From NCBI GenBank assembly GCA_020283715.1, contig JAIQCW010000015.1, positions 1-16,684 on the forward strand: a DNA stretch of 16,684 bases. Reading direction: 5' to 3'. The position numbers were made by a program, and so were the translations under genes. The notes beneath the pieces were generated by a model. It was given only the letters and a program-made list of their open reading frames with translations, had not been told where the DNA came from and ran no database searches. The number at the start of each line of letters is the position of its first letter. Position 1 is the first letter of the stretch. Origin of the DNA: Cytauxzoon felis. Its lineage: Eukaryota > Apicomplexa > Aconoidasida > Piroplasmida > Theileriidae. Below are positions 1 through 16,684 of this stretch, piece after piece.

Positions 1-360
1 TACTGGACCTCAAGTGGAACCCGAAGCTGATCTCAGGGAAGCGGAGGGGGAAATAAATAGAGAAGGCACCACGACAGTGGAAAGACGAGGTGGATTGGAC
101 CTCAAGTGGAAAACTCGGAAGGACGAAGATAATCAACCATAAGAACAAAGATATCTACCCGGAGGAACAGAGAGTGTCTACCCCTAAGAACAGGTCTCTG
201 GCCTAGTAGATGTAACCTCAAGTGGAACCCGTAGCTGATCTCAGGGAAGCGAAGGGGGAAGTAAATAGAAGAAGCTGTCTGCAAGACGACCTCGGGTGGA
301 GAGCTGATGGCAGGATGAAGAGAGTTGGATTGGACTTCAAGTGGATTGGATTTCGAATGG
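1..360 (+). repeat. Interspersed inverted-repeat element, right-hand part (cut by window start)
   Basis: The sequence is GC-richer than its surroundings. It carries three clear copies of the core CCTCAAGTGGA (from about 8, 101 and 212), two copies of the module CTGATCTCAGGGAAGCG, the module TGTCTGCAAGACGA near 276, and spacer units of the type ACCCGGAGGAACAG near 157-206. The right end is GGATTGGACTTCAAGTGG (327-344), matching the right terminus of other copies, followed by a decayed second copy to about 360. All modules point the same way, so the left arm is presumably outside the window. It lies just downstream of the stop of the minus-strand gene at 378. Short open frames across it look incidental. 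Confidence 0.9.
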
Positions 361-377
361 AATGTAATATGAATAGA

Positions 378-3300
378 TTAGAGAATGAGATTGATGGATT
401 GTGTGAAAGATTGTATATCATGTTTTAATTGATTATATTTAGATGCGGTGAATTGTTTGATGGTGAATAATAATGATTTCCAGAGTCTTTTAGAATAGGG
501 TGCATGTTGTTTAATAATTGATATAATAGTAAGTGGATTAAGATTATTATTAGTATTAATATAATTTTGTATAGTATTAATTAATGGTATAGTCATTGGT
601 AGATTGTAATTAAATAAATTAATAATATTAATATTTAATTTATTTAATATTAATAATTTTATAGAAGAAATTATATAAAAATTATTTAATTTATAATCAA
701 ATTTTATAAAATTCATTAATTGTATAGTAATATTAGATAAATTTGGTAATAATATTTCTATACTTAACCATTTCATTAATAAATTTTTATTAATTTTATT
801 ATTATTATACATAAAATTCAAATATAATAATATAATCTCTTCATTATCAGTATATTTACATAATATACATTCAAATATTTTATTACATCTTAATGGTATC
901 AATTTTATACAAATTTTCATATAATATATTAATTCATATTCATTCAATATTAATATTAATTCATATAATAATTTCATATCAATATTTATATAATTCTTAT
1001 ATAACCATATCATACCAATTATTAATATATTCGATATACCATCATTCTATAAATTATTCTCATTCTTAATATAATATAAACTCACCCTATCATCAATCAT
1101 AGATAACCATTCAATATTATCATAATCTATCATCAAATCCATTGATATCCTCTCTATCAAATCATACGTCTATAATATTTATATACATTATTTGATGTCT
1201 ACTCCACTTGAGGTCCAATCCACTTGAGGTCCAATCATTATCTTCGTCTTTAACTTCCACCGTAGGTTGTCTTGCAGACAGCTTCTTCTATTTACCTCCC
1301 CCTCCGCTTCCCTGAGATCAGCTACGGGTCTTCCACTTGAGGTCGACTCTATATAGATACATCACATGTGTATCCATCCTTCAAACAGTTTTTAGTGTCT
1401 TGTTTGCAGCATGGGCATGGTATTGATCGTATGTGTTTTAATGAGGATATGCCATTAACGTTATCAGTTAGAATAATTAACGTACTTCCAGAAGTAAATG
1501 AGCGTCGTATTATATTAGGATTACTGGAATCTGCGTAAATTGATTTACAAATACACATATTACGATATGATTTCTCAGTATACACTTCAACGAGTTTGAT
1601 GTAACCTCAAGTGGATTACCCGCAGCTGATCTCAGGGAAGCGGAGGGGGAAGTAATTAGAGGAAGCTGTCTGCAAGACGACCTCAAGTGGAACGGCGAGT
1701 GGAAGAATAGTAGGATTGAACTTCAAGTGGAGCAGTAGCAACATTCATTGGTATAAACATACTTGTGTATGATCATCATTGATGATTGATTGGAAGAGGT
1801 AGATACCGAGTATGGGTGTATAATTTGGAAGTGTATTGATGATTTCATCAAGTGTTGATTTAGATTTTTGATAGTTATTATTTGTAATTATAAGAGTATA
1901 TTTTTCCCAAATTTTAGGTTCATTATAGAATAATTTGATTATTAACTTTGAAATTTCATCATCATTACATGCTTCCATTAGTAATGATGCATATTCTACA
2001 TTTAAATTTAACATTGAAAAGAATAACATTATAATTAAAATAATTTTTGATTCTTTAGTTTCAATTACTGTAGATTTTATAAAATTATACCAACGATCAT
2101 TACTACTCAATCTAATTATACTCTTACAACCATATAATTCTAATACCCTAAAAACAAACTCCCTCCATACAACATCATTAAACTTTACACCACTCATAAT
2201 CACCGAATCCCATTCAGGTATCAATGAATTGTAGATCATATTATCATCCATATCAGAAGATTCTCCACTTGAGGTCTTGTCGTTGCCACTCGGCATTCCA
2301 CCTGAGGTCGTCTTGCAGACAGCTCTTTTAATTACTTCCCCCTCCGCTTCCCTGAGATCAGCTGCGGGTAATCCACTTGAGATTATATCAGTAGTTTCTC
2401 GTTCTTCCGGGTTGACAGTTTTCGTTCCTCCGGGTAGAATTCCTGTTCTTAGGGGTTGAACATCTTTGTTCTTCCGGGTAGACATTTCCTGTTCTTCCGA
2501 GTTAACTCCATTTGTGGTCTTAACCTTGTCTTGCAGACTGCTCTCCACCTGAGGTCTTCCACTAGGCGTGGTGCCTCTTCTATTTACTTCCCCTTCCAGC
2601 TCCCGTAGATCGCTTCCAGGTATTCCACTTGAGGTTACATTCAACACATCCTTAGCACCATCTTCCATCATTCCCATGATGGATGATCCATCACTATCTT
2701 CACCACGATCTCCGGGAGTGGCTTTACTCTTTAGAGATAGGTAATTAGAAGAAGGCTCCACGCCAAGTGGAACAGAGTTGGATTGGACCTCGAGTGGATT
2801 GGATTGGACTTCAGGTGGAGGATATTTGAATTCTATAGAGAGTAATGTGATGATTTTAGAGAGTATAATATTGAGTGTATGATTATTGATAAATTTTGTG
2901 ATTTGTGGTGAGTAGAGATTGAAGATGATGGATGGATGTAATTTATTTAGATGATTGATATGATAGAAATATCTGATAGTATTGATAGCGATATTATTAT
3001 AACCCATTTCGATCATTCTAGGTAGATAGCATTCTGTTAATAATATTAATAATGATAATTGTATATTATGATTATTAATATTAATTAATAATTTATTATA
3101 TAAATAATTAAAATAAATAATAATATTTTATTAAACCATTTTAAATTATAATTAGATTTTAATAATAAACTAGATATAAATTGCCAAAAAACAAGGTTCA
3201 ATAGAAATAATTTCATGTATATTAATATTAATATTAAATTGTATATTATTAATATTTAAATAATCATTAGACCAACATAATAACCATTTTGTAGTATCTA

Positions 3301-4102
3301 ATAAAATATTAAATTTATTAATAATTAATAATTTATAATATAATATTATTATAAAATAATATGATAATGATGTATTAATTGTATTATTATACCATTTTAT
3401 ATTATTAAAATTTATATTATTAGAAAATTTTTGTAATATTTCTATAATTTGTATATATAATTTATATAATTCATTATTATTTAATTTACGTAATAATAAC
3501 CATTCTGGTATATCTAAATTATTATTATTATATATAATATTCATTAATTCATATGTTTTATAATTTATATAATATAACCAATCATATATATATGGTGAAT
3601 CCCATATATATATATTTGATATTGTTGGTGATCTTTCTATATATTTAAATATATCTATACCATATCTTCTACCTATTATATGATTTAATTTTATATCTAT
3701 AGGTATATTAAAACCAATATTTATATTACTATTTCTATAATCATATGATATTATATTATTATATTCTATATTATAATAACGATTTATATTATTATCTTTA
3801 TCATTAGATATCTATTATATCATTATCAAATTTATAAATCAATACTAACCTTCTTCTTTTTATAATGACCATCTTCTAATTTATCTAATAATTCCTCTTG
3901 TAATTCATCATCTATACCAACTATATATTGTAATCTAAAAATAATTATATAATATTTATAAAATTATTACATCATACCTAGAATATTTTGGTGGCTTATC
4001 ATTATAAGATTCAAATGGATCATACTTTATCCTAGGAGGTGATTTAGATTCTTTATATTCTATAGCAGGTTGATACGATTTGCCAATCGTCTTCCAATCC
4101 AT
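378..4102 (-). CDS. Five-exon gene of unknown function, with an in-frame repeat insertion and two apparent frameshifts
   Basis: I do not recognise the product. The exon model on the minus strand is 4102-3978, 3934-3850, 3811-1763, 1169-1086 and 1046-378, and every junction is GT..AG and in phase. It starts MDWKTIGKSY and encodes about 1003 residues. The first 70 are charged and Pro-containing. Most of the rest is Asn/Ile/Leu/Tyr-rich and looks helical, possibly a helical-repeat scaffold. Residues about 402-586 come from an inserted element read in frame (2265-2818). Exon 3 needs a one-base deletion in the T6 run (3186-3191) and a compensating one-base insertion near the A4 run (3126-3129) to stay open. 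These could be homopolymer errors, real damage, or an intron I did not recognise. The 593-nt third intron holds a repeat-flanked Cys-rich fragment; the other introns are 38-43 nt. The start follows TTTTAG, so an upstream exon is possible. Confidence 0.75.
1204..1730. mobile_element. Composite inverted-repeat element carrying a Cys-rich coding fragment, inside an intron
   Basis: The left arm (1204-1345) begins CCACTTGAGGTCCAATC and runs in reverse orientation through TCTTGCAGACAGC and CTTCCCTGAGATCAGC. The right arm (about 1598-1730) runs forward through CTGATCTCAGGGAAGCG and TGTCTGCAAGACGA and ends GGATTGAACTTCAAGTGG. The arms are thus inverted relative to each other, with about 250 bp of unrelated AT-richer sequence between them that encodes a Cys-rich peptide on the minus strand. 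The whole unit lies in the 593-nt intron (1170-1762) of the minus-strand gene. I saw no clear target-site duplication and no transposase. Confidence 0.7.
1349..1597 (-). pseudogene. Cys-rich protein fragment (3' end only) between inverted repeat arms
   Basis: An open frame on the minus strand runs from the edge of the right arm to a stop at 1349 and has no ATG near its start. It contains CICKSIYADSSNP and ends CPCCKQDTKNCLKDG followed by a short tail. The motif C-x-C-C-x5-N-C-L-K-D-G is shared with the Cys-rich frame at 12180-13097, and in both the coding sequence runs straight into a repeat arm just after it. I therefore read it as the carboxyl end of a member of the same family, captured with the element. 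It lies in sense orientation within an intron of the host gene, so an alternative exon cannot be excluded. The function is unknown. Confidence 0.5.
2265..2818. repeat. Inverted-repeat element inside an exon, translated in frame
   Basis: The ends are CCACTTGAGGTC (from 2265) and GGATTGGACTTCAGGTGG (to 2818). On the host's minus strand it reads PPEVQS, SVPLGVEPSSNYLSLK, KATPGDRGE, VTSSGIPGSDLREL, several (N/S)PEE/SEEQ units, and SSGLPAADLREAEGEV, with no stop. No GT donor or AG acceptor sits neatly at its edges, so it appears to be kept in the mRNA rather than spliced. The peptide is hydrophilic, Ser/Thr/Gly/Glu-rich and probably disordered. Confidence 0.85.
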
Positions 4103-4447
4103 CTAAAATGTCTATTAAAATCAATGCGTAATATTAAAATTCAACCAATACGAAATTTATACTCCATTATATACACATCCTCCAACATTATGAGTTATGT
4201 CAAAGTCGCTGCGTTAAAATCCTGAATCATCGAGGCATTATTTGTGGTTTTATAGGACCATACATTACCTAATGGGGGCTGTTATAGAAAATTTGAAGGA
4301 ATGACAAAAATCATATAGTATTTACTATAGATGTTGTTGTAAAATCGAATATTAAATATTTATAAATGATTGTAATAGAATTCATGGCGTATAACCGCTA
4401 CATTATATCAGGAAAAGCGGTTAGTCACAACATTTATCTCATTAGAT
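4103..4447. other. Divergent intergenic region, putative shared promoter
   Basis: It separates the start codons of the minus-strand gene (4102) and the plus-strand kinase (4448). It is less extremely AT-biased than the surrounding introns, with patches such as GTCGCTGCG and AATGGGGGCTG around 4206-4270. It contains no repeat element and no convincing open frame. A promoter role is inferred from position only; I could not identify a specific motif. Confidence 0.4.
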
Positions 4448-5756
4448 ATGGAATCATACAAGGAAAATCACAACTCCCCTGCTCCAAATGATGTTAATAA
4501 AATAGATTATTTAAAATTATGTGCCATTTGCTGTTCCAACTTCAAGTGCAATTGTTATAGTAAAAGTGATGCAGGCTCCTCATCCTGTGATGATGATGAC
4601 GATGTTAACGAGATTGAAAAGTTCGTTGATACGAATGCATGTCTAACTGATGCATTGGATTTGGCTGAAATTAAGGATCTATGTATACGTAATGTACCAT
4701 TTTGGGATGATTTAAAGAGGGAGGATATATGTATAAGGAGGATAAAGACAGCATTGACTAATGTAGTTTTTAAAGTTGAATTGAATATGGGTGATGATGG
4801 TTCATTACGTGTACGTAAAGTATTATTGAGGATAATATTACCTCATATATCAAGTTTATATGATGTAGAAAGTCAAAGTGATGTATTGGAGATATTAGCA
4901 ATGCATAATTGTGCTCCGAAATTATTAGCAAAATGTGATGGAGCAAGGATGGAACAATGGTTAGATGGTTATATTTTAAGATCAGATTGTATTAATAATC
5001 CATCAGTATTAACATCAATGGCTAGTTTAATCGCAAAATTTCATAAACGTGCTACACTTGCAGCACCTGCACATTGGGATAGAACACCTTTTGTAATTCG
5101 TACATGTAAGAAATGGATTAATAAAGTTGCTGATATAATTAAAAAAAAGAATCTAAATGTAGATTTAGATAGTAGAATTGAAGCATTTAATAAATATGAA
5201 AAAGTTTTATCGAAATATGTCAAAGGTAAATCTTTTGCTAATGAAATTATGTTTTGTCATAACGATGTTCATTTAAAAAATGTCATTGTTACTTATCATG
5301 GGTATAGATTAATAGATTTTGAATATAGTGCTTTCAATTATGTTGGTTATGATATCGGTAATATGTTAGATGAGATAATTACAAGATATGATATATTCAC
5401 TCCACCATACTTTGAAATTGATGATAAATACGATATTTCTAATGAGTTAAAATGTTTATTCGCTAGCGTTTATTTATCAGAAGTTACATCAACTAATGTA
5501 TTACCATCAGATAAAGATATTATTAATGAATTTCTTAATTCTGTTTATGTACATTCATTAGGCCCTTGTATATTTTGGTCTCTTTGGGGATTAATAATGT
5601 AAGTTTTACTGCAATTATTTATTTAAATTATTCAGTGACTTGGAATTTAATATCCAAGATGCGTTCGATTATCATATTTTTAGCGATAAAAAATTAGAGT
5701 TGTTCAATAAAATATTTAATAAGCTTGTAAATGATAAGATTATCGATGATGTGTAA
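4448..5756 (+). CDS. Choline/ethanolamine kinase
   Basis: It phosphorylates choline and/or ethanolamine with ATP in the first step of the Kennedy pathway for phosphatidylcholine/phosphatidylethanolamine, a cytosolic reaction. The Brenner-type catalytic motif is FCHNDVHLKN (His about 271, Asp 273, Asn 278). The metal-binding choline-kinase motif is LIDFEYSAFNYVGYDIGN (Asp about 290). A conserved carboxyl segment FWSLWGLI follows. The unspliced frame stops at once after this segment, but a 37-nt intron (GTAAGT..TTCAG, 5599-5635) restores the frame and adds a 40-residue tail, giving 423 residues. The start is the first ATG. Residues about 24-52 form an unusual patch of six Cys followed by DDDDD that the catalytic core does not need. 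Choline versus ethanolamine preference cannot be read from the sequence. The gene contains no repeat element. Confidence 0.93.
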
Positions 5757-6254: not shown

Positions 6255-6415
6255 GACCTCAAGTGGAACCCGTAGCTGATCTCAGGGAAGCGTAGGGGGA
6301 GGTAAATAGAAGAGGCTCCACGCCTAGTGGAACAGAGCGCAGGATTGTAACCTCAGGTGGATGGACATCAGGTGTAGAGGTATATGTAAGATGAAGAGGT
6401 TATAACCTCGGGTGG
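6255..6415 (+). repeat. Inverted-repeat element family, partial copy (right-arm modules only)
   Basis: The order is GACCTCAAGTGGAACCC, CTGATCTCAGGGAAGCG, GGTAAATAGAAGAGGC, CCACGCCTAGTGG (a small hairpin module), then CCTCAGGTGGA, GACATCAGGTG and CCTCGGGTGG. All modules face one way. It abuts the TFIIS stop codon region (6454), so it may fall in the TFIIS 3' UTR. Confidence 0.85.
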
Positions 6416-6453: not shown

Positions 6454-7396
6454 TTAGAATTTCCATCGATTTTGGCAATTGAGGCAGTTGACGAATGTGG
6501 TCATGGGTTCATCTGATGATCTGGTTTGCATTTGATAATACATTGTATTTGAGGATTTGCATTTGGTGCAATGGAATTGTCCTTTATTATTTTTATTTTG
6601 TGAGAAGATATTTTTGACGGCCCAATCGGATTGGCATGCTTGTATAGATTCTTGTAGTATAGAATTACGTTGTAATTTTTTTTCATCAGATGCCATATCG
6701 ATAGATTTCATGGTAGTTAATTGTAGAGGTGTAATTATACCATTATATATTTTAGTATTAAAGAGTGGATTATTAATATCTTTAAGATTAAATGCAATAG
6801 CTTTAAGTTGAGAATTATATTCTTTTTGTGAAGGATTATTTAAAATATGATGATTATATAATTCAAATTCGATATTAAATATTAAATCATAAACTTTATT
6901 AATATCAACATTAATATTATGTCCAATCATAAATGCTTTAAATAAATAATTTAATGCTTTATCTCTAATATCATCATTATGTAATTTACCTTTATATATA
7001 ATATTATCATTAATATTATCTAATATATTTGATTGATTTTTATTATCATCTGATGATAATAATTCTAATTTACGTCTTTTTGATTGATTTAAATCATTTC
7101 TTAATATATCTTTCCATTTATTAATTAAATAATTTGATAATTTTATTATATCATTATTATATACTTTTGTTAATTTTGATAATATTATACCAATCTTTGT
7201 ACTAGATAATATATCTTTATTAACATTTATATTATTTAATTCTTCTAAACAATTAATAGCTAATTCATTCTTTAATTATTATATATTATTATTATATATT
7301 ATATATTAAACTTACATCTAATTCATCATTATTATTATTAGATACTTTATTTAAATATACTTCTAATTTTTCTTTAATCTCTAATATCTTACTCAT
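6454..7396 (-). CDS. TFIIS: Transcription elongation factor TFIIS
   Basis: TFIIS is a nuclear factor that stimulates RNA cleavage by stalled, backtracked RNA polymerase II. Exon 1 (7396-7316) starts MSKILEIKEK; a 46-nt intron (7315-7270, GTAAGT..AAAG) joins in phase to exon 2 (7269-6454), giving 298 residues, a normal size. Residues about 28-80 fit the N-terminal TFIIS/LW helical domain (CLEELNNINVNKDIL ... LSNYLINKWKDIL). A Lys/Arg-Ser linker and the central domain starting DDIRDKALNYLFKAF follow. The C-terminal zinc ribbon has CTKC (261-264), the acidic catalytic pair Asp280-Glu281 in SSDEPMTTF, and NCLNC (Cys289, Cys292), ending RWKF. All catalytic and zinc residues are present. It is divergent from the gene at 7584. 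Confidence 0.95.
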
Positions 7397-7583: not shown

Positions 7584-8969
7584 ATGGAATCAATTATGAA
7601 TAATATCTTAACAGATGAATTAACATCTATAGCATTACTTATAGGAGGAGCATGGTTATTAGGATTCACCAATAAAAAACATAGCCGCAGCTGGATCAGA
7701 TTCCTATATAATCGATATAATCGTATAGATAATATCTACCAATTATTACCAATACTACAAAAAAATGCCAAAGCACTGTTTTTAATCTTTAATGATATAG
7801 CAACGTTAGTTTCATTCACAATTCCATCATCAATGTCTACTTCAGAGCTGTCAATAGCCTCAAGAATTCATTAGATAATAATAATGATTCACATGTACCC
7901 AGAGATGTCATTAAAGCAATAATATCGCAAGATTACTACAGAAATAAAATCAATGATACACAAAATGCAGTACTAAATGAATTCGGTACAGATGTACACG
8001 AACTCAATCTCGCTCTACAAAAATTCTCACACGTATGTTACCACACCGAAGGTTCAACATCTCCACCTGAAGTCCAATCCAAGTCTCTTCGTCCTGCCGT
8101 CAGCTTCTTCTATTTACTTCCCCCTTCGCTTCCCTGAGATCAGCTACGGGTTCCACTTGAGGTCCATTAACTACATTAGAGATCTGTTCTTCCGGGTTGA
8201 CATCGCCACGATCTCTGGGAGTGGCTATACTCTTTAGAGATAAGTAAATAGAAGAAGCTGACGGCAGGACGATGAGAGTTGGATTGGACTTCAGGTGTAA
8301 TGCTCACTACGTTTAATGGTGTAAATATTGATATTATAGGATGATCAGGTTCAGATATATTTGATGGGTGTTGAGATGATGTATAATAGTGTATTGGATG
8401 GTGGTTATCCTCAGTGTCCTGGTGTAGATGTATGTAGTGATTTATCTCGTGAGTGTGTGATAGAGGTATTAGAGCGTGTAATGACATTGAGATTGAAGAA
8501 TGGTGATATATATAATGATGAGATGGAGAGGAATTTTATAATGGATCAGATGATGAAATATGGTTGTATGACAAGTTTTGATGCATTGGTATTATTTAGA
8601 AATGCAGAGAATTTATATAATTATGATTTTAATTTTATAAAAGAAAAGTCTAAGATGATAGAAAAGTTTAAGAGTATAAAGAGTTATGAATTTATACAAA
8701 GGGTTACAGAGAATGAATTAGAGATAATAAAGGATTCAATTGAGGATAATAATAAGATATACTTACTTGTATTTGATGATTTGATTATATTTGATTATTT
8801 TATATCATTATCTAATATTAATAAAAGGAATGATAAATCTGTAATGCTTTGGTTATTTAAATCTGATATTATAGATGGAAAATATCCTTGTTTATTATAT
8901 CCTTGTGTTATTAAGTTTTCTAAAGATAAAATTGAGGTAATTTTATATAAATTTATTGAGATTTATTAA
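7584..8969 (+). CDS. Unknown protein with N-terminal hydrophobic segment, three exons
   Basis: I do not recognise the family. The exons are 7584-7804, 7846-8032 and 8340-8969, encoding 345 residues, and all joins keep phase. Intron 1 is GTTAGT..TTCAG (41 nt). Intron 2 is GTATGT..TATAG (307 nt) and holds a complete repeat element. Without splicing, the frame stops at 7874 and again inside the element. Residues about 13-28 (TSIALLIGGAWLLGF) form one likely membrane segment, followed by a basic stretch (KKHSRSWIRFLYNRYNR), as in a tail or anchor with its bulk on one side of a membrane. The remainder is soluble-looking, with a Cys-Pro-Gly-containing patch (YPQCPGVDVC) early in exon 3 and a mixed helical/strand C-terminus. 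It is divergent from TFIIS. Confidence 0.75.
8064..8297. repeat. Complete inverted-repeat element within an intron
   Basis: This is the clearest intact copy. The first ~55 bases (CACCTGAAGTCCAATCC..., through CGTCCTGCCGTCAGC and TTCTTCTATTTACTT) and the last ~55 (AAGTAAATAGAAGAAGCTG..., to GGATTGGACTTCAGGTG) are near-perfect reverse complements. Between them are a second reverse module (CTTCCCTGAGATCAGC, CCACTTGAGGTCC), a spacer with TTCTTCCGGGTTGACA, and GCCACGATCTCTGGGAGTGGC, itself a stem-loop. It begins 31 nt after the splice donor and ends 42 nt before the end of the intron. Confidence 0.92.
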
Positions 8970-9624: not shown

Positions 9625-10145
9625 ATGTCACCATCAATGAATCGCGCAAAGGGGGTAGGTATATATATTGATTATAAATTTATAAATTAATATTATAGAG
9701 ATCACGTCAAGGTGGTACACCAAGGGATACCCCTAGAGATAGGGATACCCCTAGAGATAGGGATACTCCTAGAGATAGAGATTTGCCAAGGGATACATAT
9801 CATAATGTACCTGTACATTATCAAACATATGGTGCTACACCAGTAGCTACAAAAATCGCAAGTCATAAACCACTTGGTACAGTTGGTTTATCTACAAGTA
9901 CTGAACAATTAGCACCTGGTTTAAATAAACCATTAGTTACAAGCGCATTTCCACATAATGTTGGTGAAACAAAGAAGAGGACATATGAAGAAACACTTCA
10001 TGTAGAAAAAAATGTTAGCGCTGTTAAGAAAGTTAAGACTGAACATGGTGCTGTATATAAATTCGTTAAAGATTTTAGACATAAGACTGTAACATGGATG
10101 CAAAATGTAGCAAATACATTTAAAAGTTTATTTTGGAAAAAGTGA
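9625..10145 (+). CDS. Small basic protein with TPRDRD tandem repeat, function unknown
   Basis: There are two exons. Exon 1 is 9625-9654, encoding MSPSMNRAKG. A 44-nt intron (GTAGGT..TATAG, 9655-9698) joins in phase to 9699-10145, giving 158 residues. Exon 2 opens RSRQGGTPRDTPRDRDTPRD, an Arg/Asp-rich low-complexity stretch built on 18-nt tandem repeats. A middle region rich in Thr/Pro/Val follows, then KKRTYEETLHVEKN, which includes a basic cluster, and a basic, aromatic C-terminus (KDFRHKTVTW ... FKSLFWKK) that could form an amphipathic helix. I recognise no enzyme motif and no membrane segment. It lies about 100 bp from the convergent 3' end of EMG1. Confidence 0.7.
9724..9777 (+). repeat. 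18-nt tandem repeat, three units
   Basis: There are three head-to-tail copies of GGGATACCCCTAGAGATA (9724, 9742, 9760). The third has one C-to-T change that is silent in the reading frame. The unit encodes (D)TPRDR. It is likely length-variable between strains. Confidence 0.9.
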
Positions 10146-10248: not shown

Positions 10249-11643
10249 TCATGTAATGTTATACAATAGTTCCAATTCATTACATAACTTTGCACAACAA
10301 TGTGCCGCTGTTAAGTTATATGGAGATATCGATATAACATCCAATACATCATTTATAGTACCATAAGCTTGATCAGTTGATATTGCACCGATATGAAATA
10401 TCAAATTACACTCGTCCTTATGTTTATATAAATATTCCCTCAATCTTACCAATTCACCCGTATTAGATAAACCTATGCGATAACCACCAACAGGTAATAC
10501 AGACTCCATCTCATTCTTTATAACCTATAACATTTTATCCATACATATATATAAGAATACAATCGATTGAAGATAGTGATCCACATATTCTTCCACATCC
10601 ACCTGAGGTTATAACCTTGTCTTCCACTCGCCGTGGAGGCCTTTCTATTTACATCCCCTTCCAGCTCCCAGAGATCGCTTCCAGGTATTCCACTTGAGTT
10701 CTGTTCTTCCGGGTAATATTCCTGTTCTTAGGGTTGACATACCGAGGATGATCTCAGGGAATACGAGGGGAAGTAAATAGAAGAAGCCTCCACGGCGAGT
10801 GGAAAAAGAGGCGGATTGGACCTCGAGTAGAACACCTAGTGGAAAGGAGACCAGTACTTAATCTCAATTGGAAAAGAAAATATTGGATTGTACTTCATTT
10901 GGTATGTAAAGTTACCTTGAGAAGTATATTATTATTACCGATGGATTTAATTTTTCTTTTATCAATTAGATCATTTAATAGTATGTTGAACTTTTCTATG
11001 GATTTCGGTACTTGCAACGTAGGTGATACTTCAATTAACTCGTTAGTATTCGTACGAACATATACCTTCAACTTTCCACTCTATAGGAAGTAAATATTTA
11101 TATAACACAAAGACAGAGAGCAATGTCAACAACACTTGAGATCCAATCCAACTCTTCTCTTCCAACCCTCTTCGTCCTGCCGTCAGCTCTTCTAATTACC
11201 TATCTCTAAAGAGTATAGCCACTCCCAGAGATCGTGGCGATGAAGAAGGTAGTATTGGACCTCAAGTGGAAGTGGACTACCCGAAAGTGATTTACGGGAA
11301 CTTGAGGGGGAAGTAAATAGAGAAGGCCACCACTCCTAGTGGGAGGACCTCAGGTGGAGAAGCTGTCTGCAAGACGAAGGAACGTTGAGTGGAAGTGGTG
11401 AGATAAGGATTGGATCTAAAGTGGAGTTGAAAACAACTCGTTATGCTTCGTTGGATGAATAACGTTGTATGAGTATTTTTTACCTTATTGAGAGGTCGAT
11501 CTTGAAGTACAATTAGACATTGATGTAGTATATCGATTCTTGAATCCTATAGTTATAGGTGATGATCCCACAAGGTTGGAGCGTACGGGTGTATTAACAA
11601 TTGATGCATCTTCGAGTATTATAAAAATTTTTAAATTTGTCAT
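10249..11643 (-). CDS. EMG1: Ribosome biogenesis methyltransferase EMG1/NEP1, N-terminal exon structure uncertain
   Basis: EMG1/NEP1 is a SPOUT-class enzyme that N1-methylates a pseudouridine of 18S rRNA and helps small-subunit assembly in the nucleolus. Exons on the minus strand are a start exon from 11643 (MTNLKIFIILEDAS), then 11546-11484, 11080-10916 and 10524-10249. Recognisable family segments in order are ILHQCLIVLQDRPLNK, LKVYVRTNTNELIEV, LLKVIKN, LPVGGYRIGLSN, FHIGA and ISISPYNLTAAHCCAKLCNE near the end. The last three form the cofactor-binding knot region. The 403-nt and 391-nt introns each hold a repeat element. The segment of about 30 residues with the conserved DDH region, normally between the first strand and ILHQC, is not visible. 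With a donor at 11586 the protein would be about 186 residues, shorter than usual. It is divergent from the POT1-like gene, about 80 bp away. Confidence 0.88.
10599..10902. repeat. Inverted-repeat element in EMG1 last intron, decayed right end
   Basis: The left arm starts CCACCTGAGG and contains CCACTCGCCGTGG, TCTATTTACATCCCC and GATCGCTTCCAGG. The centre has TTCTTCCGGGTAATATTCC. The right arm has GATGATCTCAGGGAA, AGTAAATAGAAGAAGC and CCACGGCGAGTGG, then a degenerate terminus GGATTGTACTTCATTTGG (10885-10902). The terminus reaches within about 13 nt of the EMG1 splice donor. The many substitutions suggest an old copy. Confidence 0.85.
11132..11425. repeat. Inverted-repeat element in an EMG1 intron
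   Basis: The ends are ACACTTGAGATCCAATCC and GGATTGGATCTAAAGTGG, inverted relative to each other with few mismatches. The interior includes CGTCCTGCCGTCAGC, CTCTAAAGAG, GCCACTCCCAGAGATCGTGGC (stem-loop), CCCGAAAGTGATTTACGGG (stem-loop), CCACCACTCCTAGTGGG and TGTCTGCAAGACGA. It lies within the 403-nt intron 11081-11483. Confidence 0.9.
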
Positions 11644-11724: not shown

Positions 11725-14700
11725 ATGGGACAGGAGATTTTTGATACGTTCAATAAATTTCTAGATGATTTGTATAATTTAGATATATCGCATATACATT
11801 GGAAACCACGGCTTATATTAATCAAACGTATACTCAATGATTCAAGAATTAATATAGACTCTTCCCAAGATCCCTTTGTCGAAGGCCTCTCTACACTACT
11901 CAATGCAGCCATATCTACAAGTACGTACTCACACATACTTACACATCATACACAAACAGGGAATATTTTCAACTCATCACCCGATGCATACCAAAATATC
12001 AATTTCAACACAGGTTTGCATACTCGAAGTAACATAATTACTCCACTTGAGGTTACATCTAATTCCTTTCCACTAGGCGTGGAGCCTCTTCTATTTACTT
12101 CCCCCTCAAGCTCCCGTAGATCACTTTCGGGTTCCACTCGAGGTCCATCTTTCCCATTGGATAGAGGTTTTCCAACTGCTTGAGGTTTCTTGATAAGGAG
12201 GAGGCAAAGAAATGTGATGTTAGAGTGTTCGATACTAATTACGAAACTCGTAAGAATCAATATGGATGTCTTTCTAATAAAAATTTCTGCTGCGTTACTA
12301 ATGTGAAGAATAAATATGATGAGATGATTAAATCGGCTAACGGATTGAGTGGAGTTCAGGATGAATCTGTTGTACAAAATAATGGTGTAGAGAGTTGTAG
12401 TAATCTTCAATCATGTCCTACAACTACTGGAGGTTCGAATACTGCTGATTGTTCAGGTAAAGATTGCGAATGTGATGATAAATGTAATTGTACACCTACT
12501 CCTACGGATAATCCCAACGGTGTCTTTAAGAATCTATGCAATATGATGTGTTGTAATGGAAAAGAAAAATGTTCATGTACTGATGGGAATTGTCAGTCCA
12601 TAAAAACATTTTGTACTCAAGTGAAGAGTTTCACGGATCTAGTGAAGGAGGTTAAAAATGGAACGGCAACTACATCTCCTACTACAACTACTCCTTGCGA
12701 CTGCAAGGATAAAAATTGTGATTTCTGTAAAACATGTCGCTTCATTAAACTCATTGAGGAGTATACGAAGGAGTTGGGGAAGGAACATAAATGTAGATGC
12801 AATAAACCTGATTTGATTGATGCAGTCATTGATATAACACTAGACGTAGGCTTTACCGCTACAAAATACTTCTTCAATAAGTTTGCTGATTTAATTTCTG
12901 GTAATGGTGAGCAAAAAAATAGCCAAGGAACAGATGGAACTGCTCAAGGATCCAATCCAAAATTTTATGAGTGCAAGTGTTGTATAGACAAAAACGATAA
13001 CTGCTTGAAGGATGGAAGATATATGACATATACCATATATAGTAGACCTAGAGTGAATTACCCGCAGCTGATCTCAGGGAAGCGGAGGGGGAGATAAATG
13101 GAAGAGCTCCATGCAATGGAAAAGATGGACCTTCGGTGGAATAGTTATCTGTAAGAATTATTTAAATATTTCTATTGTTATAGGTCGTATGGGTGTGGAT
13201 TATTCTGGTATATTGGAATCGGTGATATCTCAGATGAATGTATTGGCTAATCAGTTATCTTTATTTAATAGTTTGACGAATAGGAGTAGGAATAGTTATA
13301 CGGGTATTGGTGTGACGAATAATATCGATGGTCAGCATGTATTATTACCTCCATCTTATAGAAGTGTATATGATCCATTGATTTCTGTTAGATCATTTAA
13401 TGAAAATTCCACCCCGAAGAACGAAGATTTGAATAGAGATAATGATAATTTTGATTCTGATGTTAATGTTCCAAGTTTAGATTTAACTAAAATACAACAA
13501 TATTTTCAATTACAAAATAAATCCTTTGATCAACAAAGTTATTCACACTCTGTTGATGGAGGTAGTTATCTTCCCTCTATAGATGAAGGAGTATACCATG
13601 ATGATAATTTAATTGATGACGCAGGAGGAAGTTATGAACCTCCTCCATTGGAAGGAGGAGGAAATAATGAACTTCCTCCAGTTGACGGAAGAAATGATAT
13701 TGTTTCAGTTGATGTAGGAAATGATATAGTTCCAGTGGATCCAATTGAACCTCCTTCAGTGGAAGGAAGTGGAAATGAACCTCCATCAATAACATCGGAT
13801 ACATCTAATGTGATAAATAGAAATATATCATCACCTCCATCTTCAATGTATAAAGAGTTGGTGAATATAGAAGTTGATATGGAGAATTTCAATACATTTG
13901 TTATAGCAATAGAAATGACAAGTGCTAGATTAAGATATACAAGATTTAAAAGAGATATAATAAATTATAGAGTAATAGATCCATCAATATATATAGAAGG
14001 ATATAATAATCATATTTATACTATACAAGTTATGCAATCAAATTCAATAGAACAATATCATGTTGGATTTGGTGATATATTAAGATTACATCGATTCAAT
14101 TCTAAAAATGGTTATAATAAATCTGGTAATAAATCAATAGATCTTATACTTTCAAGAAATAATCCAACCATTAGATTATGGCCATATCAACCTGATGATA
14201 CCATCATCTATCAAAATAATAATCATATACAAGATAACAATATTGAACATGAAATACTTTATACAGGAAGATCCAATCATTCACTACCCGATATCAATTT
14301 TAACATCAATCACTCATATGATATCAATTCCAATGTCCCACCTGAGGTCCAATCCACATCTGTTCCACTCGGCGTGGAGCCTTCTTCCAATTACCTATCC
14401 CTGAAGGGTAAAGCCACTCCCGGAGATCGTGGCGAAGAATCCGAGACGATCCATGGGAGTCGAGGTGAGGTAAATAGAGAGGCCACCACGGCGAGTGGAA
14501 AAGAGGTTGTAGCATCGAGTGGAAGCCATCTGCAAGACAAGGAAATGACCTCAGATGTAACGCCTACTGGAACAGAAAATGTAAACCCGGAAGAACAGAA
14601 AATATCAACCCGGAAGAGCAGGTATTTTACCCGGAGTAACGTAAAAAGTATCAACTCGGAAGAACAGGATTTACCTGGAAGAACAAAAGATATCTACCCG

Positions 14701-15965
14701 GAAGAACGAACATCTGGTATAGTAGATGTAACCTCAAGTGGAATACCCGAAAGTGATCTACGGGAACTTGAGAGGGATGTAAATAGAGAAGGCTCCACTC
14801 CTAGTGGAAGAGGAGTTGAAGACAAGGAAAGGACTTCAGGTGGTGAAGTTGATGTTATAGAATTGGATGATTATGTATCTGTGAATTCTGTGGATGGATT
14901 GACAGATAAGCAATTATTAGAATCACAGGGTATAACAATATGTGGTCCTGGTGAATTGAAGGTATATGATGAGGATATATCTATAATATATAGATTGAGG
15001 AAATGGATAAATGATAATTTAGATCCTATAGAATGTATAACAAATAATGAATATACTAAAAATTTATCAGATTTAATATCAACTCCTGGTGATTTTATTG
15101 TTAATGTTATTAAAGTATCACCTGAAAATGGTATTAATTTAATTGTTAGAGATTCAACTGATATAGCAGCTGTTATTAATCTTGAAATGATATTATTAAC
15201 TAATCTTATTGAATCTAAAAATCATTTAATACCTGGTGATTGGATCAAACTTAGAGCATTCAATAGATTCTATCATCATATCACACTCAAAAATGGCTTT
15301 AAAATAATCGCATTACACCCAACAGATTCATCCACAATCACCAGATTACCATACGCCAATATCAAACTCAAAGATATACCCGATGATCTATTCGCCAATC
15401 ATAGGTAAGCTTACATTAATGAAGTTACTGCTCCACTTGAGGTCCTGTAGTTCCACTCGCCGTGGTGGCTCTCCACCTGAGGTCCAATCCTACTCTTCAT
15501 TCCACTCGCCGTGGTGGCCTTCTCTATTTATCTCCCTCTAAAGAGTAAAGCCACTCCCAGAGATCGTGGCGGAGGTTGTTACTGGACCTCAAGTGGAACC
15601 TGGAAGCGATCTACGGGAGCTGGAAGGGGAGATAAATAGAGAAGCTGACGGCAGGACTGACCTCAAGTGGAGAAGGCCACCACGGCGAGTGGGAAGACCT
15701 CAGGTGTGGTGTCTACTACATTGTTTCGTAATGGTTATTTATTTCTTGTTATATTATAATATATAGGAATGTTGTGAAGAAGGTTCGTATGAAGGTATGG
15801 AATGATATATCGATGATGAATAGTTTATTTCCAAAAAAATTAAAGAAGGATCCGGGTTATATAGAGCGTGTATTACAATTACGTACGAATGATTTAGTTA
15901 GGGTTGCTAGAGAAGAGAATAGATATTCATCACAAGAAGAGGGTGAAATATATTCATCACAGTAA
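11725..15965 (+). CDS. POT1: POT1-like telomere end-binding protein with two OB folds
   Basis: POT1/TEBP-alpha proteins bind the single-stranded telomeric G-strand in the nucleus through paired OB folds. The exons are 11725-11920, 13184-15404 and 15767-15965, encoding 871 residues; both junctions (GTACGT..TATAG, GTAAGC..TATAG) keep phase. Residues 1 to about 290 are acidic and low-complexity, with Pro-Pro-rich repeats such as EPPSVEGSGNEPP. The first OB fold is about 300-400 and contains VGFGDILRLHR (GDI about 362), a hallmark of this family. The second is about 640-790, with GDFIVNVIKV, GDWIKLR (about 750) and TRLPY. The linker between them (about 450-618) is an element read in frame. Intron 1 (1263 nt) holds a Cys-rich cassette and intron 2 (362 nt) another element. 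The OB-fold reading is good; the POT1 assignment is weaker because the N-terminal extension is unusual. The start ATG follows a possible acceptor, so an earlier exon is possible. Confidence 0.65.
12043..13139. mobile_element. Composite inverted-repeat element carrying a long Cys-rich frame, inside an intron
   Basis: The left arm (12043-12150, reverse orientation) starts CCACTTGAGGTTACATC and includes CCACTAGGCGTGG, TCTATTTACTTCCCCCTC, GATCACTTTCGGG and CCACTCGAGGTCC. The right arm (about 13055-13139, forward) includes CCCGCAGCTGATCTCAGG and GAAGCGGAGGGGG and ends GGACCTTCGGTGG. About 900 bp of non-element sequence encoding a Cys-rich polypeptide lies between the arms. The unit sits wholly inside intron 1 (11921-13183) of the POT1-like gene. 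The layout matches the smaller cassette at 1204-1730. Confidence 0.7.
12180..13097 (+). CDS. Cys-rich open frame without start codon (captured gene fragment?)
   Basis: The frame is open for about 300 codons but its first ATG is about 50 codons in, and no splice-in is obvious, so it looks 5'-truncated. It is rich in Cys, Lys, Thr and Asn, with clusters CSGKDCECDDKCNC, CCNGKEKCSC, CDCKDKNCDFCKTC and KCRC, two Thr/Pro spacers (TPTPTDNP, TSPTTTTP), a short hydrophobic stretch (DAVIDITLDVGFTATKYFF), and ECKCCIDKNDNCLKDG. The last ~15 residues come from the repeat arm. The composition resembles parasite surface multigene families, but I recognise no named one. There is no signal peptide or anchor. 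It is sense-oriented inside a POT1-like intron, so it could be an alternative exon, a fragment or a pseudogene. Confidence 0.5.
   Translation: MRFLDKEEAKKCDVRVFDTNYETRKNQYGCLSNKNFCCVTNVKNKYDEMIKSANGLSGVQDESVVQNNGVESCSNLQSCPTTTGGSNTADCSGKDCECDDKCNCTPTPTDNPNGVFKNLCNMMCCNGKEKCSCTDGNCQSIKTFCTQVKSFTDLVKEVKNGTATTSPTTTTPCDCKDKNCDFCKTCRFIKLIEEYTKELGKEHKCRCNKPDLIDAVIDITLDVGFTATKYFFNKFADLISGNGEQKNSQGTDGTAQGSNPKFYECKCCIDKNDNCLKDGRYMTYTIYSRPRVNYPQLISGKRRGR
14338..14843. repeat. Inverted-repeat element inside an exon, translated in frame
   Basis: It starts CCACCTGAGGTCCAATCC and ends GGACTTCAGGTGG. It reads through without a stop as PPEVQS, SVPLGVEPSSNYLSLK, KATPGDRGE, then NPEEQ/TRKSR/SEEQ-type units, VTSSGIPESDLREL, VNREGSTPSGR and TSGG. 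It is the same order and frame as the copy in the exon of the gene at 378-4102. It replaces or extends the linker between the two OB folds. Confidence 0.88.
15433..15706. repeat. Inverted-repeat element in the last intron of the POT1-like gene
   Basis: The ends are CCACTTGAGGTCC and GACCTCAGGTG. Two CCACTCGCCGTGG hairpin modules on the left face a CCACGGCGAGTGG on the right. The interior has CTCTAAAGAG, GCCACTCCCAGAGATCGTGGC, GATCTACGGGAGCTGG and CTGACGGCAGGAC. It lies within intron 15405-15766. Confidence 0.9.
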
Positions 15966-16520: not shown

Positions 16521-16684
16521 CCACTTGAGGTAAGTCCACCTCTTATTCTCTTGCAGAGAGCTTCCTTATTTACTTCCCCCTTCGCTTCCCTGAGATCAGC
16601 TGCGGGTTCCACTCGAGGTCTAGTACTACTACCTTCCTTCGTCTTGCAGACAGCTTCCTTATTTACTTCCCCCTCCGCTTCCCT
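16521..16684 (-). repeat. Interspersed inverted-repeat element, left-hand part (cut by window end)
   Basis: It begins CCACTTGAGG at 16521 and runs in reverse orientation with two successive module pairs: TCTTGCAGAGAGC, TTATTTACTTCCCCC and CTTCCCTGAGATCAGC; then CCACTCGAGGTC, TCTTGCAGACAGC and TTATTTACTTCCCCC, ending in CGCTTCCCT at the window edge. The right arm should follow beyond the window. Confidence 0.9.

What the first reader, a model, noticed from the sequence alone, without database searches (positions are those of the whole stretch)
8064..8297. An interspersed inverted-repeat element family with termini near CCACYTGARGTCCAATCC
Seen: complete copies at 1204, 2265, 8064, 10599, 11132, 12043, 14338 and 15433 start with CCACTTGAGG-like sequence and end with its reverse complement, often extended to about 18 bases. 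The copy at 8064-8297 has ~55-bp near-perfect inverted ends. Eleven occurrences cover very roughly a fifth of the window. Known: short elements with inverted ends and no coding capacity are typical of MITE-like non-autonomous transposons. Inference: this is an abundant mobile family. Such elements are considered scarce in apicomplexans, so it would be notable. I found no target-site duplication and no transposase, so the mechanism is open.
Basis: partly seen in the sequence, partly recalled or inferred. Interest (0 to 1): 0.85.

Follow-up and report, generated by a model that had tools for sequence, protein, structure and literature searches.

The report
Protein-coding hairpin repeats in a piroplasm
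A blood parasite related to Theileria carries a large family of short, hairpin-built repeated DNA elements, many of which sit inside genes in the correct reading frame and add extra stretches to the proteins, something known from Rickettsia bacteria but not, as far as we could find, from a eukaryotic nuclear genome.

Summary
The repeats are real and abundant but are not simple inverted-repeat MITEs. They are chains of short hairpin modules in a regular order (T-X-M2-T-M1-X-T in coding orientation). The long inverted arms of the 8064 copy are exceptional: the two arm cassettes are chosen almost independently. Copies lie between genes, in introns (8064, 15433, probably two in EMG1) and inside exons (2265-2818, 14338-14843). 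Modules deep in long ORFs read in one frame and orientation (37 of 37). Of 104 cores, 20 of 20 with coding flanks are in phase and stop-free, against 37 of 84 others (p=9e-7). Host ORFs include valyl-tRNA synthetase, RIO1 and a PREX-like enzyme; Theileria ValRS lacks the three inserts. The Cytauxzoon felis antigen cf76 contains two such segments, and its single-exon ORF was amplified from cDNA (PMC3748084), so there they stay in the mRNA. Module stems covary. The genome is probably C. felis (inferred). Best reading: a translated, non-autonomous element family that works like Rickettsia palindromic elements, in a eukaryotic nucleus. No target-site duplication, empty DNA site or transposase was established.

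The parts
7..344 (+). Element cluster, T< M1< T< D< D2< T< M1< S2< T< S1< T<; at the contig start, 3' of ORF 378-1046(-). (Here and below 'strand' is the strand on which the element's own frame reads.)
   Evidence: ORF
1204..1343 (-). Half element T> T> T> S2> M1> T>; context unresolved
1604..1730 (+). Half element T< M1< S2< T< T<; context unresolved
2265..2818 (-). In-frame coding element inside ORF 1748-3127(-): PPEVQSN..YLSLKSKATPGDRGE..VTSSGIPGSDLRELEGEVNRRGTTPSG..
6256..6415 (+). Element T< M1< C2< T< T< T<, 3' of the TFIIS gene 6454-7275(-)
8063..8298 (-). The flagged copy: T> S1> M1> T> D> M2< S1< T<; antisense to its gene, inside predicted intron 8033-8339(+)
8033..8339 (+). Predicted host intron GTATGT...TATAG; removing it joins two ORFs in frame
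10599..10903 (-). Element (parsed 10599-10802: T> C1> M1b> T> D> D2> C1<; degenerate end to 10903 read by eye) in the predicted EMG1 intron 10525-10915(-)
11130..11425 (+). Element (parsed 11175-11374: S1> M2> T< M1b< C2< T< S2<; degenerate ends read by eye) in the predicted EMG1 intron 11079-11483(-), the less certain of the two EMG1 introns
12043..12168 (-). Half element T> C2> M1b> T> C3>; context unresolved
13060..13156 (+). Half element M1< C3< T< S2< at the junction of ORFs 12165-13097 and 13189-15404
14338..14843 (+). In-frame coding element inside ORF 13189-15404(+): PPEVQSTSVPLGVEPSSNYLSLKGKATPGDRG..VTSSGIPESDLRELERDVNREGSTPSG..TSGG
15433..15707 (+). Element T> C1> T> C1> M2> T< M1b< S1< T< C1< T< in predicted intron 15405-15766 of the same gene
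16521..16684 (-). Element T> S2> M1> T> S2> (parsed to 16655), running off the contig end

Best explanation
A selfish, non-autonomous interspersed element family that has invaded a piroplasm nuclear genome. Each element is a chain of short hairpin modules in a regular order. The modules share one open frame on one strand, so a copy that lands in an exon in the right orientation, phase and length is translated as a polar, probably disordered insert and is tolerated; other copies survive in introns and between genes. Shown: interspersion, modular grammar, the single frame, in-frame use inside ORFs of essential enzymes, absence of the inserts from ValRS orthologues, covarying module stems. Supported by published cDNA work on one gene, cf76: the segments stay in the mRNA. 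Inferred: that it spreads as DNA, that hairpins matter for spreading, that it is selfish, and that modules swap by recombination between copies. It works like Rickettsia palindromic elements but is not shown to be related to them.
For: Genome-wide copies; 53 clusters in 170 kb of C94, 29 in 30 kb of C37, 13 in the window. One strand and frame in 37 of 37 module hits deep in long ORFs and in 18 of 18 long ORFs. Phase test not conditioned on openness: 12 of 13 same phase, 13 of 13 sense. Cores: 20 of 20 coding-flanked in phase and stop-free, against 37 of 84 others. Complete copies: length 2 mod 3 in 8 of 8 coding, 6 of 20 non-coding. Third-position excess in coding M2 copies, p 0.0005. Known parts kept on both sides of elements: ValRS, RIO1 kinase domain and basic tail, the PREX-like helicase and exonuclease. 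cf76 carries two segments and its single-exon 2172-bp ORF was amplified from cDNA (PMC3748084). Stem covariation.
Against: No target-site duplication stands out (best z 2.8 among 54 tests). No DNA-level empty site was seen; the empty sites are at protein level only. No transposase was found, and none was searched for genome-wide. Non-coding copies also keep more phase than chance (46 of 84), which a coding-first origin would explain equally well. M1 shows no significant codon-position effect (p 0.10). M2 is open in one frame only, so its frame in open ORFs is expected and is no independent evidence. Mobility now is not shown: scored copies are mostly 74-88% identical to the 8064 copy. Whether the species is C. 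felis, on which the cDNA argument leans, is inferred.
Confidence: 0.72

Rival explanations
1. An ordinary MITE family: two terminal inverted repeats moved by a host or lost transposase, non-coding; in-frame copies are accidents.
For: Inverted YTCCAC-type termini; copies in introns and between genes.
Against: A shared frame in every long ORF found, 20 of 20 cores in phase, module-level covariation, nearly independent arms, no clear TSD.
Confidence: 0.12
2. Introner-like elements: copies in genes are introns carrying splice sites in their termini.
For: Termini read ...GAG|GT... and ...CTCAG|G..., and several copies lie in introns.
Against: In the two introns with read-through evidence the splice sites lie about 26-59 nt outside the element. 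Splicing at the terminal GT and AG would remove L-13 bases, not a multiple of 3, in the 8 complete coding copies (lengths 2 mod 3; arithmetic by hand). cf76 was amplified from cDNA unspliced (PMC3748084).
Confidence: 0.04
3. A co-opted host function: hairpin elements kept as regulatory, insulator or recombination sites, with exon copies a by-product.
For: Many module positions are nearly invariant, others covary in stems, and stem pairs are rarely broken in the pooled copies, most of which are non-coding (139 of 168 M1 hits). G-T and C-A mismatches are similar (18 and 13), as expected for a DNA-level constraint.
Against: Copies occur in many unrelated contexts and many are partial. Young age plus diverse source copies could give the same pattern.
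Confidence: 0.08
4. Module stems were made complementary by template-switch repair at quasi-palindromes, not by selection on a hairpin.
For: Strand symmetry of mismatches (18 G-T, 13 C-A); whole C-G to G-C flips. Compatible with the best explanation; it concerns the covariation only.
Against: Between-arm palindromes, which such repair should also perfect, are hardly better within a copy than between copies.
Confidence: 0.3

Closest known systems
Rickettsia palindromic elements (RPE)
   Same: Palindromic or hairpin elements found in and between genes, inserted in frame in unrelated genes and adding a conserved peptide (PMC10969869, passages seen; Ogata 2000 and 2002 known only from citations there and recall; 2002 was not held).
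   Different: Bacterial, about 150 bp, ten families; here a piroplasm nuclear genome, roughly 100-600 bp modular chains, hundreds of coding copies by extrapolation, no sequence relative found in bacterial and archaeal genomes (one short pattern) or plasmids (one peptide).
MITEs
   Same: Short interspersed copies, inverted termini, no transposase gene in the element.
   Different: One frame open through the modules; arms are not copy-specific palindromes; no TSD established.
Introner elements (e.g. Amoebophrya, PMC7789003, passages seen)
   Same: Alveolate genome, inverted repeats, stem-loops, many copies in genes.
   Different: Not introns themselves: exonic copies stay in frame, intronic copies lie within larger introns.
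PARCELs (PMC2996958, abstract and outline seen)
   Same: Coding sequences with dyad symmetry dispersed in genomes.
   Different: PARCELs are tandem 25-residue amphipathic repeats in ORFs without assigned function; these are insertions into unrelated genes, housekeeping ones among them.
Coding palindromes in nematomorph mitochondria (PMC6649704, passages seen); Magnusiomyces byp elements (mentioned there)
   Same: Hairpins inside coding sequence.
   Different: Organellar; the first are perfect inverted repeats, the second untranslated.
BOX elements of pneumococcus (recalled)
   Same: Modular repeated elements with variable subunits.
   Different: Bacterial; no comparison was made here.

Membership tests
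Rickettsia palindromic elements | In-frame insertion in unrelated ORFs with a conserved peptide | tested here: met
Rickettsia palindromic elements | Also present in non-coding DNA | tested here: met
Rickettsia palindromic elements | Bacterial (Rickettsia) genome | tested here: not met
   Piroplasm:
Rickettsia palindromic elements | Sequence relationship to RPE families | tested here: inconclusive
   No relative in bacterial/archaeal genomes (one short peptide pattern, 16 stretches, none confirmed); no RPE sequence was compared directly
MITE | Terminal inverted repeats | tested here: met
   28 complete copies, base outside CCAC is T in 51 of 56 ends
MITE | Target-site duplication | tested here: inconclusive
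   No clear signal in 28 copies; no empty DNA site available
MITE | Cognate transposase in the genome | not tested
   The genome search unreachable
MITE | No coding capacity | tested here: not met
   cf76
Introner element | Element ends coincide with splice sites | tested here: not met
   introns predicted, no RNA data of this assembly
PARCEL | Tandem 25-residue amphipathic repeat | tested here: inconclusive
   Not seen by eye in the peptides; no PARCEL profile was run; no Pfam family in 7 members

The most novel reading that the evidence does not exclude
A self-spreading coding element whose hairpin cassettes are exchanged between genomic copies in frame, so that hundreds of unrelated parasite proteins share the same tag; the published seroreactivity of cf76's C-terminal region would then partly reflect this shared tag, not the antigen itself. 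Against the immune part: only 38 of 673 arrayed C. felis proteins were seroreactive (PMC6310948, passages; which of them carry elements is unknown), and cf76 raised no antibody in a later vaccine trial (PMC10058880, passages). The odds were lowered from 0.15 to 0.12 for these.
Probability: 0.12. Interest if true: 0.95.

Novelty: new variant of a known kind. Interest (0 to 1): 0.85.

Why it matters
In-frame palindromic insertions are known as a Rickettsia speciality (PMC10969869). The same way of life on a larger scale in a eukaryotic nucleus would show that essential proteins can be tagged repeatedly by mobile DNA and keep working, and gives a natural experiment on how proteins tolerate insertions. 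It also bears on practice: the Cytauxzoon vaccine candidate cf76 contains two such segments, so serology or vaccine work may be measuring in part a peptide shared by many parasite proteins.

Tried and rejected
Introner reading: rejected on lengths, intron positions and published cDNA. Long-palindrome reading: rejected as general anatomy, though same-copy arms are slightly more alike than chance (16, 31, 4 and 18 of 1000 shuffles reach the observed value at 12, 30, 45 and 60 nt). Target-site duplications: no clear signal. Known RNA family: none at gathering scores in the window or up to E 5 at 8000-8400. Pfam family for the peptide: none in 7 members. Homologues of the peptide in plasmids, bacterial and archaeal genomes and viral contigs: none (one to two short patterns or one peptide each). 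First protein search with the window protein: nothing (it also missed cf76, so its silence says little). Window taken as Babesia at first because of a Cys-rich ORF: dropped. A transposase search and a check that cf76 lies in this genome were planned but could not be run; a tblastn of cf76 against the fetched stretches showed element-type matches only, in an output that I cut at 4,000 characters.

Weak points of my own tests: the 'coding' set is open by construction, so its zero stops mean nothing; 8 of 139 non-coding M1 hits and 5 of 91 M2 hits have a stop in the frame. In one search the weaker class (summed length 250 codons or more) holds 7 of 23 hits in other frames, probably exons running into elements. 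M2's consensus is open in one frame only and M1's in three of six (read by hand), so M2 hits add little to the frame count. In one search the score cut-off of 8 was my choice, the codon table was trained on the same stretches, and four of the 13 clusters come from two genes; at least two of the five 'opposite strand' clusters (C37 6600 and 12393) are in-frame copies, so strand calls from 150-nt flanks err. The counts 8 of 8 against 6 of 20 and 18 against 13 were made by hand. The stem pairs were picked from the covariation table, so their shuffles overstate the contrast; its parsimony counts are inflated by module recombination and short alignments. Some M2 arms are counted twice (87 arm pairs from 110 M2-M1 pairings). 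Clusters come from about 217 kb (window, C94, part of C37), one piece of which is element-rich; add loci brought in because they match the element.

Full report
WHAT WAS CHECKED. The window is a whole contig (C10) of an 8.62-Mb, 181-contig assembly. Non-repeat DNA is very AT-rich and the repeats are near 45-50% GC. Repeats cover 18.8% of the window. The flagged copy has 56-nt arms, 96% complementary, and folds very stably (z -13.4). A search of the genome with it gave 3066 first-look candidates, of which 40 were scored, with 86 matches reported.

ORGANISM. The choline kinase (4442-5602) finds Theileria equi proteins first (48% and 44%), then T. orientalis (42%) (120 of 524 hits listed). An ORF with helicase, 3'-5' exonuclease and part of a DNA polymerase A domain is of the PREX type, an apicoplast enzyme of apicomplexans (recalled). 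A search with a valyl-tRNA synthetase ORF returned, besides Theileria ValRS, the Cytauxzoon felis antigen cf76 (P0206), matched through element-encoded sequence. The published C. felis assembly has 361 contigs, 9.1 Mb and 31.8% GC (PMC3748084, section read); the window is 30.8% GC and the fetched stretches 29.8 and 31.8%. The genome is therefore probably C. felis; this was not confirmed, because the genome search stayed unreachable, and the smaller size and contig number here are not explained.

ANATOMY. Parsing gives 13 clusters in the window, 53 in 170 kb of contig C94 and 29 in 30 kb of C37, with a regular grammar. In coding orientation it is T X M2 T M1 X T, where T is the YTCCACYTGARGTCC terminus, M1 and M2 are conserved modules, and X is one of several small cassettes (S1, S2, C1, C2, C3). 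Partial copies, extra T-X pairs and D units are common. Over 87 arm pairs the X types of the two arms agree in 23 cases against 20.1 expected, and arms within a copy are barely more complementary than arms between copies (0.596 against 0.567 over 30 nt, reached by 31 of 1000 shuffles). The long inverted ends of the 8064 copy are thus a matching pair of S1 arms, not the rule. In 28 complete copies the base outside CCAC is T in 51 of 56 ends, and no target-site duplication stands out.

STRUCTURE. In 175 M1 copies the stem pairs 6-30, 10-26, 11-25 and 12-24 covary, including C-G to G-C exchange at 11-25 (112 and 48 copies). In 117 M2 copies 19-26 and 20-25 do the same, 21-24 in three copies. The M1 stem is interrupted: 7-29, 8-28 and 13-23 do not pair regularly. 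Watson-Crick fraction is 0.95 against 0.58 shuffled (M1) and 0.989 against 0.79 (M2); the pairs were chosen from the data. Parsimony gives 10-16 changes per pair for M1 and for 19-26, and 4 and 3 for the other two M2 pairs, though module recombination makes the trees unsure. G-T and C-A mismatches in the M1 and M2 stems are similarly rare (18 and 13, hand count, p 0.47), so the constraint looks strand-symmetric, as for DNA hairpins or template-switch repair; this is weak evidence.

CODING. All 37 module hits (23 M1, 14 M2) lying at least 120 codons inside an open frame on both sides use one strand and frame, although M1's consensus is also open in two antisense frames (in the weaker class 16 of 23). 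All 18 ORFs of 200 codons or more that hold a module use it. A test that does not ask for an open element: of 84 clusters, 13 have coding signal on both sides on the same strand; 12 of 13 are in the same phase and these 12 are open, and 13 of 13 are sense (p 1.7e-5 and 1.2e-4). Five more have signal on opposite strands (at least two of them misjudged, see weak points), 25 on one side, 41 on neither. Of 104 M2-M1 cores, 20 have coding flanks, and 20 of 20 are in phase without a stop between, against 37 of 84 others (p 9e-7). Variation sits at third positions in coding M2 copies (ratio 1.88 against 0.94, p 0.0005), but not significantly in M1 (1.25 against 1.11, p 0.10).

HOSTS. Of the 18 ORFs, 7 have Pfam matches: ValRS-type synthetase, RIO, Sec23/24, formin FH2, PHD finger, Noc2 and the PREX-like enzyme; 11, the two window ORFs among them, have none. 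In ValRS three elements fall into three long gaps of three Theileria orthologues and one unnamed relative (a few orthologue residues are strewn through the first two), the first inside the catalytic core between the WWG and DTWF motifs, and KMSKS is kept. In RIO1 the kinase domain and the conserved basic tail are both kept, with the elements between them. In the PREX-like ORF the elements lie between helicase and exonuclease. For Sec24 the part before the element matches only weakly (2.5 bits), and for formin only the FH2 domain is sure.

TRANSCRIPTION. cf76 (723 aa) holds two element segments, about residues 178-272 and 574-661. Tarigo et al. 2013 report a single exon and amplification of the 2172-bp ORF from cDNA, strong reaction of infected-cat sera with the C-terminal region, a length difference between isolates and a 30-bp tandem repeat that varies (PMC3748084; abstract, passages and results section seen). 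The C-terminal region contains the second segment. Whether the sera see the element part is unknown; 38 of 673 arrayed proteins were seroreactive (PMC6310948, passages), and a later trial found no cf76 antibody after vaccination (PMC10058880, passages).

INTRONS. Copies at 8064 and 15433 lie within introns whose removal joins the reading frames. Two more lie in predicted introns of EMG1; the full EMG1 model was not completed (its first exon did not read through). Splicing at the GT and AG of the element termini would shift the frame in the eight complete coding copies, so they are not introners.

MECHANISM. The best reading is an element that spreads as DNA, with hairpins important for spreading or kept by repair, and whose modules share one open frame so that sense, in-phase insertions in exons are tolerated. 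Mobility, the enzyme and the exact ends are inferred or unknown. By extrapolation from C94 (53 clusters in 170 kb) the genome would hold some 2,700 clusters, and with 12 of 84 clearly exonic, several hundred coding copies; these are rough estimates from a small, not random, sample.

LITERATURE. Nine searches of the open library showed no report of such elements in an apicomplexan or of in-frame palindromic elements in a eukaryotic nuclear genome. Only the top of each listing was seen (for instance 20 of 143, 15 of 38, 10 of 13,647), the C. felis papers were seen in passages or single sections, and the library lacks most subscription papers, so this is not proof of novelty.

Noticed in passing
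P0206 (cf76), residues 636-657: An 11-residue unit (EADGRNVTSGG) is repeated in tandem at the end of the second element segment; the cf76 paper reports a 30-bp tandem repeat that differs between isolates.
   Followed up: partly
window 2640-2700; L039, L048, L049: A further recurring module encoding SDGSSIMGMMEDGAKDVLDV, palindromic in DNA by eye, sits in the middle of several coding elements.
   Followed up: no
L049, L048, L005: Another recurring stretch, GYGDKKHYNYNLPHD..NKPHYELG, follows several coding elements, mostly on contig C37.
   Followed up: no
C37:120001-150000 (L048-L050): Element density is about three times that of C94 (29 clusters in 30 kb against 53 in 170 kb); possibly subtelomeric.
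   Followed up: no
window 12165-13097: Cys-rich ORF of 310 aa without a Pfam match, possibly a surface-antigen type gene; half elements at both ends.
   Followed up: no
window 9705-9794: 18-bp tandem repeat encoding PRDRDT units in ORF 9699-10145.
   Followed up: no
   Followed up: no
non-coding cores: Non-coding copies are in phase more often than one third (46 of 84), suggesting recent origin from, or through, coding copies.
   Followed up: partly
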